A stretch of 64,000 bases of DNA from assembly GCF_003611635.1 (NCBI RefSeq), contig NZ_RAVZ01000006.1, forward strand, positions 1 to 64,000, in the 5' to 3' direction. Below the pieces are notes generated by a model, which did not search any database, was not told the origin of the DNA, and saw only the letters and a program-made list of their open reading frames with translations. A program made the position numbers and the translations under genes. The stretch comes from Corallococcus terminator (GTDB taxonomy: Bacteria; Myxococcota; Myxococcia; Myxococcales; Myxococcaceae). This document shows, in pieces, positions 2,393 to 35,659 of the stretch; the first letter of the stretch is position 1, and each line of letters starts with the position of its first letter.

Positions 2393-5300
2393 ATGAAGCC
2401 CTCGACTCCGTCCGCCGACCGCTCCCGGGAAGAACTCGTCGCGTGGCTGCGGGCCTACGTGGCCCGGAGCACGGACCTCGCCGTGGAGACCATCGACGTC
2501 GACCGGGCCTTCGTCGACTACGGGCTGACGTCGAAGGACGCGGTCTTCCTCTCCGGAGAGTTGGGGGAGTGGCTGGGGCGGGACGTGTCCCCCACGCTCG
2601 TGTGGCAGCACCCGACCATCACCGCCGTGAGCGTGCACCTGGGCCGCGCTCCGGAGCCGGAGCGCCCGGTGACGCCCGTGATGCCGGCGGCGGTTTCGGA
2701 GGGCGCCATCGCCATCGTCTCGCTGGGCTGCCGCTTCCCGGGCGCGCCCACGCCCGAGGCCTTCTGGGCCCTGCTCCAGCGCGGCGGCGATGCCATCACC
2801 GAGGTGCCCGCCGACCGGTGGGACACCCAGCGCTACTACCACCCGGACCCCACGCACCCCGGGACGATGAACACGCGCTGGGGCGGGTTCCTGGAGCAGG
2901 TGGACGGGTTTGATCCGCTGTTCTTCGGCATCTCGCCCCATGAGGCGGCGCGGATGGATCCGCAGCAGCGGCTGCTGCTGGAGGTGGCCTGGGAGGCGCT
3001 GGAGCGTGGAGGGCAGGCGCCGCACGCGCTCCGGGGCAGCCGCACGGGCGTGTTCGTGGGCATCAGCAGCAGCGACTACGCGCAGCGGCAGTTCGGGGAT
3101 CGCTCACGGCTGGACGCGTACGCGGGCACGGGCAACGCGCACAGCATCGCGGCCAACCGGCTGTCGTACCTGCTGGGCCTGCGGGGCCCGAGCATGGCGG
3201 TGGACACCGCGTGTTCCTCCTCGCTGGTGGGCCTGCACCTGGCCTGTCAGAGCCTGCGCGGCGGCGAGTGCGACCTGGCGCTCGCGGGCGGCGTGAACCT
3301 CATCCTCAACCCGGACCTCAACATCGCCTTCTCCCGGGCGGGGATGATGGCCCCGGACGGGCGCTGCAAGAGCTTCGACGCGGCGGCGGATGGCTACGTG
3401 CGCTCCGAGGGCTGCGGCGTCGTCGTCCTCAAGCGGCTGGCCGACGCGCAGGCCGCGGGGGACGTCATCCTCGCGGTGATCCACGGCTCGGCCGTCAATC
3501 ATGACGGGCCCAGCAACGGGCTCACCGCGCCCAACGGCTTCGCGCAGCAGGAGGTCATCCAGCAGGCGCTGCGGCAGGCCGGACTGTCCGCCGGGCAGAT
3601 CAGCTACGTCGAAGCCCATGGCACCGGCACGACGCTGGGAGACCCCATCGAGTTGGAGGCGCTGAAGGCCGCGCTGCGGCCCGGGGGACGCTCCGAGCAG
3701 CGCTGCCTCGTCGGTTCGGTGAAGGCGAACATCGGGCACCTGGAGTCGGCGGCGGGCATCGCGGGGCTGGTGAAGATCGTCCTCGCGCTCCAGCACGCGG
3801 AAGTCCCGCCGCAGGTGCATTTCCGCACGCTCAATCCGCACGTCTCGCTGGATCCGAGCGCGTTCCACATCCCGACCCGGCGCGAGCCGTGGACGTCGGA
3901 GGCCGGAGCGCGCTTCGCGGGTCTCAGCTCGTTCGGCTTCGGCGGCGCCAACGCGCACGTCATCGTGGGCGAGGCCCCGCGCCGGACGCCCGTCACCGAG
4001 ACTGTTTCCGAGCATGCGCAACACCTGCTGACGCTGTCGGCCCGGACCGCGCCAGCCCTGCGCGAGTTGGTCCAGCGGTATCAGGCCCGCCTCACCGCGC
4101 CAGATGCGCCGGCCCTGGCGGACCTCTGCTTCACCGCCAACACCGGACGCGACACCTGGGCCCACCGCTTCAGCACGGCGGCCACCTCCCACGCGGAGCT
4201 GGCCACGCAGTTGGATGCGTTCCTGCACGAGCGTCCCCTTCCCGGCCTGCACCACGGAGAGGTCCAACGGAGCGCACAGCCGCGCGTGGTCTTCCTCTTC
4301 CCGGGCCAGGGCGCGCAGTTCGCGGGCATGGGACGCAAGCTGTTCGAGACCGAGCCCGTCTTCCGCGATGCGATGGAGCGCTGTGATGCGCTGCTGCGCC
4401 CGCACCTCGACGTGCCCCTGCTGTCCGTCGTGTATCCGGCCCCTGGAGAAGACACCGAACGGATCCACCAGACGCGCTACAGCCAGCCGGCCCTGTTCGC
4501 GCTGGGCTACGCGCTGTCGGAGCTCTGGCGCTCCTGGGGCGTGAAGCCGGACGCGGTGATGGGACACAGCGTGGGTGAGTACGTCGCGGCGCACGTCGCG
4601 GGCGTGCTCGGGCTGGAGGACGCCCTGCGCCTGCTGGCGACGCGCAGCCGCCTCATCCAGGCCCTGCCCCAGGACGGCACCATGGCCGCGGTGCTGGCCG
4701 ACGAGGCCACCGTGCGCGCGGCGTTGGGGGAGGAACGGGACGTGGAGCTCGCCGCCATCAACGGCCCGCGCCACGTCGTCATCTCCGGAGCGCGGCCCGC
4801 GGTGCAGCGGGTCGTGGAGGCCTTGCAGGAGCGGAGCATCGACTCACGTCCGCTCACGGTCTCGCATGCGTTCCACTCGGCGCGGATGGACCCCATGCTC
4901 GCGGAGTTCGAGCAGGCGGCGCGCGCCATCGCGTTCCAGGCTCCTTCCCTTCCGCTCGTCTCCAACCTCACCGGCACCGTCCTGAAGGCAGCGCCCGACG
5001 CGGGCTACTGGCGGCGCCACGTGCGCGAGCCGGTGCAGTTCCTCAAGAGCATTGAACACGCGGCCCACGCGGGCCCGGCGGTGTTCATCGAGCTGGGCCC
5101 GAACGACACGCTGCTCGGCATGGCGAAGCGCTGCCTGCCGGAGGGCGCGAACCTCTGGCTGCCCAGCCTCAAGAAGCACCAGGACGACGCGCGGACGCTG
5201 CTGGGGAGCCTGGGCGCGCTGTTCGTCCGGGGCGTCCCCGTCGATTTGAAGCAGGTGGACCGTTCCCCGGCGCGCCAGCGCGTGCTGCTGCCGACCTATC

Positions 5301-33916: not shown

Positions 33917-35659
33917 ATGCTGCCAGCCAATGCCCCCGTTGAGACCCTGACCGACCTGCTGCGCTGGCGCACCCAGCGCCATCCGGAGTCCTACGCCTAT
34001 ACCTTCCTGCCGGACGGGGACGGCGCCGAGCAGAACTGGACCTACGCGGAGTTGGACCGGCAATCGCGCGCGGTGGCGGCCCAGTTCCAGGCGTACAAGG
34101 CCGGCGGTGAGCGGGCGCTGCTGCTCTACCCACCGGGCCTGGAGTACCTGGGCGCGTTCTACGGCTGCCTCTACGCGAACGTCATCGCCGTGCCGGCCTA
34201 TCCGCCGCAGTACTTCCAGTCCATCTCCCGCATCCTCTCCATCCTCCAGGATGCCCGGCCGCGCTTCGCGCTCACGACCGCCGCCATCCTGGAGACCGTG
34301 CGGGCCCTCCAGGGCGAGTACCCGCAACTGGGCGACATCCAGTGGATCGCCACGGACGCACTGCCGGCGGGAATCGAGGAGACGTGGAAGGCCCCCAACG
34401 TGAAGGGGGATGACCTGGCGTTCCTCCAGTACACGTCGGGTTCCACGTCGACGCCCAAGGGCGTCATGGTGCTGCACCGCAACCTGATGTCGAACCAGGC
34501 GATGATCCAGCGCGGCATGGCGCTGGACGAACAGTCCACCATCGTGAGCTGGCTGCCGCTCTACCACGACATGGGTCTCATCGGGACCGTGATGCAGGCG
34601 CTCTACAACGGCTCGCGCGCGGTGCTGATGTCGCCGTGGTCCTTCCTCCAGAAGCCGTCGCGCTGGCTGCGCGCCATCAGCCACTACCGCGCGAACCTCA
34701 GCGGAGCCCCCAACTTCGCGTACGCGCTCTGTGTGCGGAAGGTGAAGCCCGAACAGCAGGAGGGCCTGGACCTCAGCTCCTGGAGGGTCGCGTTCAACGG
34801 AGCGGAGCCCGTGCGAGCGGACACGCTGAACCGCTTCGCCGAGGCCTTCGCCCCGGTGGGCTTCCAGCGTCAGGCGCTCTACCCCTGCTACGGCCTGGCC
34901 GAAGCGACGCTCTTCGTCACGGGCGTGACGCCTGACACGGGGTTCACCCAGCGCACCGTGGACGCGAGCGCGTTGGAGAAACACCGCGTCGTCACCGTCG
35001 AGCCCGGCACGGCGAACGCACGGCCGGTGGTCAGCAGCGGAAGGAGCTGGGGAGACTCGCTCATCCGCATCGTGGAGCCGGAGACGTTCAAGGCGCGCGC
35101 GGACGGCGAGGTGGGAGAAATCTGGGTCGCGGGTCCCCACATCACCCAGGGCTACTGGGGCCGCGCGGAAACGGACACGCAGACCTTTGGAGCTCGCATC
35201 GCGGGCAGCGACGAAGGCCCCTTCCTGCGCACGGGCGACCTGGGCTTCCTGCTCGACGGAGAGCTGTTCGTCACCGGGCGCCTCAAGGACATGATCATCA
35301 TCGATGGTCGCAACCACTATCCCCACGACATCGAGCAGACGGTCGAGTCCCAGCACCCGGCCTTCCGCGTGGGAAGCTGCGCGGCGTTCTCCGTCGAGCG
35401 CGACAACGAGGAGAAGCTGGTCGTGCTGATGGAGGTGGACCGCCGCTACGCTCCGCCCGCCGGAGGCGAAGGCGCCCTGGACCTGAAGCAGGTCACCCGC
35501 AAGCTGCAGCAGGCCGTGGCCGCCGCGCACTCCGTGGAGCTGCACGACTTCGTGCTGCTCCAGTCGGATGAAATCCTCAAGACCTCCAGCGGCAAGGTCC
35601 AACGCCGCGCGTGCCGCGAGAAGTACCTGGAAGGCTCACTCCAGCGCTGGCAGGGCTGA
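33917..35659 (+). CDS. fatty-acyl-AMP ligase (FAAL) loading the assembly line
   Basis: This 580-residue ANL-superfamily enzyme should activate a fatty acid as its acyl-adenylate and pass it to a carrier protein rather than to CoA. FAAL-type signatures are visible: YTSGSTSTPKGV near residue 172, SWLPLYHDMGLIG, GAPNFAYALC, and C-terminal GRLKDMIIIDGRNHYPHDIE, followed by the catalytic lysine region SSGKVQRR. No carrier domain is fused to it. The only acyl carrier without an obvious loader in the locus is ACP1 of the first megasynthase, 31 kb upstream, so the FAAL presumably works in trans. It is the last gene of the operon. Fatty-acid chain length cannot be predicted from the sequence. Confidence 0.9.
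   Translation: MLPANAPVETLTDLLRWRTQRHPESYAYTFLPDGDGAEQNWTYAELDRQSRAVAAQFQAYKAGGERALLLYPPGLEYLGAFYGCLYANVIAVPAYPPQYFQSISRILSILQDARPRFALTTAAILETVRALQGEYPQLGDIQWIATDALPAGIEETWKAPNVKGDDLAFLQYTSGSTSTPKGVMVLHRNLMSNQAMIQRGMALDEQSTIVSWLPLYHDMGLIGTVMQALYNGSRAVLMSPWSFLQKPSRWLRAISHYRANLSGAPNFAYALCVRKVKPEQQEGLDLSSWRVAFNGAEPVRADTLNRFAEAFAPVGFQRQALYPCYGLAEATLFVTGVTPDTGFTQRTVDASALEKHRVVTVEPGTANARPVVSSGRSWGDSLIRIVEPETFKARADGEVGEIWVAGPHITQGYWGRAETDTQTFGARIAGSDEGPFLRTGDLGFLLDGELFVTGRLKDMIIIDGRNHYPHDIEQTVESQHPAFRVGSCAAFSVERDNEEKLVVLMEVDRRYAPPAGGEGALDLKQVTRKLQQAVAAAHSVELHDFVLLQSDEILKTSSGKVQRRACREKYLEGSLQRWQG

What the first reader, a model, noticed from the sequence alone, without database searches (positions are those of the whole stretch)
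2393..35659. Myxobacterial beta-amino lipoheptapeptide assembly line with iturin-like logic
Seen: ACP-KS-AT-ACP-aminotransferase fused to an NRPS module, then six more modules on three proteins, a terminal thioesterase, an exporter and a FAAL in one co-directional series. Known: this KS/AMT logic makes beta-amino fatty acids in iturin and mycosubtilin, which also carry seven residues. Inference: the product is a beta-amino-acyl heptapeptide, possibly cyclised through the beta-amine. It differs from iturin in having a cis AT, a detached FAAL and a different predicted peptide. Cystomanamides and microsclerodermins are the nearest myxobacterial relatives I recall; whether this cluster is already characterised is unknown to me.
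Basis: partly seen in the sequence, partly recalled or inferred. Interest (0 to 1): 0.85.

Follow-up and report, generated by a model that had tools for sequence, protein, structure and literature searches.

The report
Orphan myxobacterial beta-amino lipopeptide assembly line
This Corallococcus locus encodes an enzyme assembly line, also found in Myxococcus, that most likely makes a positively charged seven-residue lipopeptide with a beta-amino fatty tail; the cluster was predicted before and its product is unknown, but two features appear to have been overlooked: a dehydrating domain and a co-inherited arginine-deiminase-like gene.

Summary
In detail: 2393-35659 holds ACP-KS-AT-ACP-AMT-C-A-PCP, six further NRPS modules on three proteins, a TE, an MFS exporter and a detached FAAL, all on one strand. 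The AMT is of the mycosubtilin MycA type. The genome is Corallococcus-like. Fifteen loci read here (Corallococcus, Myxococcus, one further genus) have the same gene order, domain order and near-identical adenylation codes: X-Gly-Thr-Asn-Phe/Tyr(+E)-Orn-Orn. A 2022 review had already predicted FA-X-Gly-Thr-Asn-Phe-Orn-Orn-TE for M. xanthus and M. hansupus, so the cluster family is known as an orphan. I found no characterised product. It is not iturin or cystomanamide by module order, and its cis AT and detached FAAL have precedent. Two points are additional. (1) The module-4 C domain falls in the dehydrating C_modAA clade (McyA, AmbE), so residue 3 is probably dehydrobutyrine, not Thr. It carries CHxxxDG in all 15 loci, a variant reported for zeamine and fabclavine domains. 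(2) A divergent arginine-deiminase-fold gene (1271-2236, minus) occurs in exactly the 21 of 145 order genomes that hold the cluster. Cyclisation, acyl length and residue 1 stay unresolved.

The parts
1271..2236 (-). Arginine-deiminase-superfamily (pentein) enzyme, 321 aa, divergent from the operon
   Evidence: Pfam PF02274 in 15/15 orthologues; fold match to arginine deiminase Z 23.2; present in exactly the 21 of 145 genomes that hold the cluster; catalytic D/E/H/C motifs invariant
2237..2392 (.). Short divergent intergenic region, presumed promoter region
   Evidence: sequence layout; inference
2393..10618 (+). ORF1 PKS-AMT-NRPS hybrid: ACP-KS-AT-ACP-AMT-C-A-PCP
2426..2647 (+). ACP1 (YGLTS), presumed acceptor of the FAAL-activated fatty acid
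2705..4012 (+). KS domain, intact Cys-His-His
4289..5236 (+). AT domain (GHSVG, HAFH: malonyl type)
5414..5617 (+). ACP2 (LGADS)
6095..7312 (+). AMT domain, MycA type, PLP lysine present
7385..10537 (+). Module 1 C-A-PCP, code DAENIGAITK (substrate unresolved)
10615..14046 (+). ORF2: TubC_N docking domain and module 2 C-A-PCP, code DILQLGMIWK (Gly)
14141..28375 (+). ORF3: modules 3-6
14153..17320 (+). Module 3 C-A-PCP, code DFWNVGMVHK (Thr); PCP of the GGDS type
17393..18715 (+). Module 4 C domain of the dehydrating C_modAA type (CHAIIDG, KSILVAAH, FRRYPM)
18773..20530 (+). Module 4 A-PCP, code DATKVGEVGK (Asn)
20573..23680 (+). Module 5 C-A-PCP, code DACTIAAVCK (Phe-like aromatic)
23693..25030 (+). 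Epimerisation domain of module 5
25118..28276 (+). Module 6 C(DCL)-A-PCP, code DVGEIGSIDK (Orn)
28365..32534 (+). ORF4: module 7 C-A-PCP-TE, code DVGEIGSIDK (Orn), TE GHSFG
32531..33877 (+). MFS exporter
33917..35659 (+). Free-standing fatty-acyl-AMP ligase (FAAL)

Best explanation
An orphan beta-amino lipoheptapeptide synthetase, inherited as one block of seven genes in Corallococcus, Myxococcus and one further genus. The FAAL (33917-35659) adenylates a fatty acid and loads it on ACP1. The KS extends it once with malonate from the cis AT, and the MycA-type AMT turns the beta-ketone into a beta-amine. Seven modules then add X (unresolved, perhaps basic), Gly, Thr, Asn, a D-aromatic residue (Phe-like, with an E domain), Orn and Orn. 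Before condensing residue 3 with Asn, the module-4 C domain, of the C_modAA type, removes water from Thr to give dehydrobutyrine. The TE releases the chain (linear or macrolactam, not known) and the MFS protein exports it. The arginine-deiminase-fold enzyme belongs to the same unit and acts on a guanidino substrate, either to adjust the arginine/ornithine supply for the two Orn modules or to tailor a residue. Shown: gene and domain content, motifs, conservation, C-domain clade, co-inheritance. Inferred: all chemistry, the residue identities and the role of the pentein enzyme.
For: Domains. Intact active sites. AMT best hit MycA. FAAL best hit is a solved FAAL-type structure, E 3e-171. Same six-gene and domain order in 14 further loci with near-identical codes. 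Module-4 C domain: best solved hits McyA (6e-99) and AmbE (2e-52) ahead of PvdL (7e-41); in one clade with both, support 100/100, while module 6 falls with a DCL domain and modules 1, 2, 3, 5 and 7 with each other; has the published C_modAA signature [K/R]SVLLAAH and Arg-Arg (PMC11342130), in 15/15 orthologues and in no other C domain of the window. In non-orthologous loci, C domains of this type follow Ser/Thr modules in 21 of 23 readable cases, against 3 of 9 for other C domains that follow a true A domain in the same loci. Pentein gene in exactly the 21 genomes with the cluster, in none of the other 124.
Against: No product, expression or knock-out data. Code DAENIGAITK has no known assignment that I could confirm. 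Two C_modAA-type domains in related loci follow Asn, not Ser/Thr. The first active-site His is Cys (CHAIIDG) in all 15 loci, which PMC11342130 ties to domains doing side-chain conjugation rather than plain dehydration. The perfect co-occurrence of the pentein gene is partly phylogenetic (16 of 21 genomes in one genus), though it also splits Corallococcus (4 with both, the other listed members with neither).
Confidence: 0.72

Rival explanations
1. Module-4 C domain dehydrates Thr and then joins a side-chain or other nucleophile to the double bond, so residue 3 ends as a 2,3-diaminobutyrate cross-link (as suggested for fabclavine/zeamine) rather than free Dhb.
For: CHxxxDG in all 15 loci; among 50 C_modAA domains the Cys-for-His change is reported for FclJ-C2 and Zmn17-C2, described as side-chain conjugating. 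Zmn17's final C domain has CHxxxDG and follows a Thr module with code DFWNIGMVHK; its best BLAST hit in 2013 was a gene Lilab_30101, by my knowledge of M. fulvus HW-1 (PMC3547906). Fabclavine contains 2,3-diaminobutyric acid (PMC5709968).
Against: Cys-for-His is a correlation in two domains; the nucleophile in those systems lies in a different peptide context, and the paper defining the chemistry was not held. FclJ and Zmn17 sequences could not be fetched, so a sister relationship was not tested.
Confidence: 0.22
2. Plain product as antiSMASH reads it: Thr stays Thr and the module-4 C domain only condenses.
For: The adenylation code is Thr; the catalytic second His is present.
Against: Clade, signature motif and upstream-residue statistics all point to C_modAA.
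Confidence: 0.12
3. The cluster makes iturin, cystomanamide, or a close congener.
For: Shared KS-AMT-NRPS start and seven residues (iturin) or myxobacterial origin (cystomanamide).
Against: Module codes and order differ (against PMC9581180 Table 2); AMT only 53-55% identical and in another group.
Confidence: 0.02
4. The pentein gene is a neighbour by chance and not part of the pathway.
For: No direct functional link shown; divergent orientation.
Against: Exact 21/21 co-occurrence and constant position although outer flanks differ between genera.
Confidence: 0.1

Closest known systems
Predicted orphan BGC of M. xanthus GH5.1.9c20 and M. hansupus, FA-X-Gly-Thr-Asn-Phe-Orn-Orn-TE (PMC9581180, 2022)
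   Same: Identical residue order to the one read here; orthologous loci with the same codes in Myxococcus including M. xanthus AM003.
   Different: Passages read there mention no AMT logic, dehydrating C domain or pentein gene for it; no product.
Mycosubtilin/iturin synthetases (MycA, ItuA, BamA)
   Same: FAAL, ACP, KS, MycA-type AMT, seven modules, TE.
   Different: AT is cis and FAAL is a separate gene here; different peptide; dehydrating C domain and pentein gene.
Puwainaphycin synthetase (Cylindrospermum; PMC4219810)
   Same: Separate FAAL, PKS-AMT-NRPS hybrid, dehydrothreonine (Dhb) residue, TE.
   Different: Puwainaphycin has a methylating PKS module, a monooxygenase domain and a different, longer peptide.
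Cystomanamide synthetase (Cystobacter)
   Same: Myxobacterial, cis AT, AMT, lipopeptide.
   Different: Fused FAAL, five modules Asn-Asn-Phe-glyceric acid-Tyr with FkbH, linear product; AMT 55% identical.
Zeamine/fabclavine NRPS (Zmn17, FclJ)
   Same: C_modAA with CHxxxDG after a Thr module.
   Different: Polyamine hybrids without this architecture.
Arginine deiminase and other guanidine-modifying enzymes
   Same: Fold and catalytic motifs.
   Different: 321 aa against about 400; far below the NCBIfam arcA cut-off.

Membership tests
KS/AMT beta-amino lipopeptide synthetases | MycA-type aminotransferase between PKS and NRPS parts, PLP lysine intact | tested here: met
KS/AMT beta-amino lipopeptide synthetases | FAAL and ACP for fatty-acid loading | tested here: met
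KS/AMT beta-amino lipopeptide synthetases | beta-amino fatty acid in the product | not testable with these tools
   needs LC-MS/MS of the strain
Iturin family | FAAL fused in the first synthetase and no cis AT (from my knowledge of MycA/ItuA with FenF) | tested here: not met
   cis AT in ORF1 and separate FAAL gene
Iturin family | Iturin-type peptide (Asn-D-Tyr-D-Asn start, from knowledge) | tested here: not met
   codes read X-Gly-Thr-Asn-Phe-Orn-Orn
Cystomanamide | Asn-Asn-Phe-glyceric acid-Tyr modules with FkbH | tested here: not met
Puwainaphycin | methylating PKS module and monooxygenase domain | tested here: not met
   absent from ORF1-ORF6
C_modAA (dehydrating C domains) | clade with McyA/AmbE C domains | tested here: met
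   100/100
C_modAA (dehydrating C domains) | [K/R]SVLLAAH helix and Arg at C6 | tested here: met
C_modAA (dehydrating C domains) | first His of HHxxxDG (usual in the clade but not strictly kept) | tested here: not met
   CHAIIDG in 15/15; one search reports that seven of 50 C_modAA domains lack this His, so it does not define the clade
C_modAA (dehydrating C domains) | dehydration of the upstream Ser/Thr | not testable with these tools
   upstream module reads Thr
Arginine deiminase (arcA) | score above the curated family cut-off | tested here: not met
   38.8 bits against 489.1
Pentein / guanidine-modifying superfamily | fold and catalytic Asp-Glu-His-Cys set | tested here: met

The most novel reading that the evidence does not exclude
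The module-4 C domain dehydrates Thr and then lets an internal nucleophile (for example a side-chain amine of residue 1, or the Asn side chain) add to it, giving an internally cross-linked cationic beta-amino lipopeptide with a 2,3-diaminobutyrate bridge, whose guanidino or ornithine chemistry is set by a dedicated arginine-deiminase-fold enzyme that I have not seen tied to a lipopeptide synthetase before.
Probability: 0.17. Interest if true: 0.65.

Novelty: new member of a known kind. Interest (0 to 1): 0.42.

Why it matters
It is an intact, conserved assembly line in the predatory genera Corallococcus and Myxococcus, so the product probably has a steady role there, and it can be found by a single knock-out. 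The corrected structure prediction (Dhb or diaminobutyrate at residue 3, D-aromatic at 5, two Orn) changes the masses to look for; with Dhb, a search for the plain Thr sequence would look about 18 Da too high. The pentein gene gives a new lead on how such clusters handle ornithine or guanidino groups.

Tried and rejected
Dual E/C or missing-E reading of module 3/4: considered because the module-3 PCP is of the GGDS type and no E follows; rejected in favour of C_modAA by motif and tree; PMC10880069 notes that such PCPs also precede dehydrating C domains. Assigning residue 1 by code DAENIGAITK: no match in PMC12283262; a similar code DVENVGAIT occurs in a Ktedonobacter locus, but no pentein homologue was detected in that genome, and without a positive control that empty answer shows little. 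First domain-calling script failed on file names and one motif script picked the wrong window record; both were rerun. Zmn17 and FclJ sequences could not be fetched, and the zeamine and AmbE structure papers are not held. Plasmid search with the C domain gave only distant homologues. Paper searches for a characterised product found none, but most subscription journals are not held and MIBiG was not available. Arginine deiminase with NRPS clusters in the literature: nothing relevant among the listed papers.
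Full report
Setting. The window is the first 64 kb of an 80.5-kb contig in a 10.35-Mb genome.

ORF1 (2393-10618) is ACP-KS-AT-ACP-AMT-C-A-PCP; ORF2 carries a TubC_N docking domain and module 2; ORF3 carries modules 3-6 and one epimerisation domain; ORF4 is module 7 with a thioesterase; then an MFS protein and a free-standing FAAL. 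Active-site motifs of KS, AT, AMT, carrier domains, C domains, E and TE are intact, apart from the Cys noted below.

Conservation. A search of 145 genomes of the order with the AMT domain gave 21 genomes at 71% identity or more. I read 14 of the orthologous loci in addition to the window: all have the same six genes in the same order with the same domains (the doubled E hits in three loci, and a split first C hit in one, I read as one domain broken up by the profile or frame). Specificity codes, extracted by alignment to GrsA positions taken from my own knowledge, are near-identical in all 15: M1 DAENIGAITK, M2 DILQLGM[IV]WK (Gly), M3 DFWN[VI]GMVHK (Thr), M4 DATK[VI]GEVGK (Asn), M5 DA[CA]T[IV]AA[VI]CK (Phe-like aromatic), M6 DVGE[IV]GSIDK and M7 DVGEIGSIDK (Orn). 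Residue names are from recalled code tables. Such constancy across genera argues for one stable product.

Prior knowledge. A 2022 review reported an antiSMASH-predicted BGC in M. xanthus and M. hansupus for FA-X-Gly-Thr-Asn-Phe-Orn-Orn-TE (PMC9581180). This is the same residue order. The cluster family is therefore already in the literature as a prediction. I found no product for it, and a December 2025 survey still lists hybrid NRPS-PKS clusters conserved in Corallococcus and Myxococcus as unknown (PMC12766979), without naming this one in the passages read.

Beta-amino logic. The AMT's best solved relative is MycA of mycosubtilin (E 1e-133; glutamate-semialdehyde aminomutase 6e-62). In a tree the window family forms its own clade (98/99), separate from the group holding MycA and the cystomanamide-type AMT (89/93, not a firm split). 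Detached FAAL and a PKS-AMT-NRPS hybrid are also seen in puwainaphycin (PMC4219810), and a locus with cystomanamide architecture in a related genome also has a cis AT. These features are thus not new.

Residue 3. The C domain of module 4 is not a standard one. Its best solved relatives are McyA and the dehydrating AmbE domain. In a tree it joins both with 100/100 support, while the module-6 domain joins a DCL domain and those of modules 1, 2, 3, 5 and 7 group together. It carries the published C_modAA signature in all 15 loci and the other C domains of the window lack it. In non-orthologous loci the module before such a domain reads Ser or Thr in 21 of 23 readable cases, against 3 of 9 for other C domains that follow a true A domain (twelve further rows are FAAL reads and were left out). 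So Thr is probably turned into dehydrobutyrine. All 15 loci have Cys for the first His (CHAIIDG). In a published set of 50 this change is reported for FclJ-C2 and Zmn17-C2, described as side-chain conjugating; Zmn17's last C domain indeed follows a Thr module (PMC3547906) and fabclavine contains 2,3-diaminobutyric acid (PMC5709968). A cross-linked residue 3 is therefore a live alternative.

An extra gene. The divergent gene at 1271-2236 encodes a 321-residue protein of the arginine-deiminase superfamily. It is found in exactly the 21 genomes that hold the cluster and in none of the other 124, at the same place although the outer flanks are shared only among the Corallococcus-like loci. A moderately confident model (mean pLDDT 74) matches arginine deiminase best (Z 23.2, rmsd 3.4 over 303 residues; amidinotransferase SxtG 18.4, DDAH 17.9), and the Asp, Glu, His-x-Asp and Cys motifs are invariant. 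It scores far below the arginine deiminase cut-off, so I call it a guanidine-modifying enzyme of unknown reaction. With two Orn modules in the line, ornithine supply or tailoring of a basic residue is the simplest reading; this is inference.

What is not known. Acyl chain length, residue 1, stereochemistry beyond module 5, and whether the TE makes a macrolactam through the beta-amine (iturin-like) or a linear peptide (cystomanamide-like).

Verdict. A real and well-formed assembly line of a known kind, already predicted once, with two useful corrections to the predicted product and pathway.

Noticed in passing
G000 contigs C444 and C455 (L103, L106): The same genome holds two further AMT-containing PKS/NRPS loci (AMT 54% and 49% identical), one KS-AT-T-AMT-C-A-T-TE and one T-AMT followed by two Gly-coded modules.
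   Followed up: partly
L081-L082 (G081): A relative with FAAL fused to ACP-KS-AT-ACP-AMT-C-A-PCP, fewer modules, a TE and an MFS gene (AMT 62% identical): a candidate shorter relative of the window cluster.
   Followed up: partly
L085, L089, L094, L100: Related genera carry a conserved small cluster FAAL-T plus KS-AT-T-AMT-C-A(Gly)-T-TE, apparently an orphan beta-amino acyl-glycine type pathway.
   Followed up: no
L137, L138: C domains of the C_modAA type that follow Asn-coded modules rather than Ser/Thr (NHAIIDG in L137).
   Followed up: no
L114: A record titled Comamonas sp. KCTC 72670 holds the Myxococcus-type cluster; the label looks wrong.
   Followed up: no
window 39102-44013: Iron-sulphur assembly genes (IscS, Fe-S_biosyn, HscB, Hsp70) downstream of the cluster, partly shared with Corallococcus-like relatives but not part of the BGC.
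   Followed up: no
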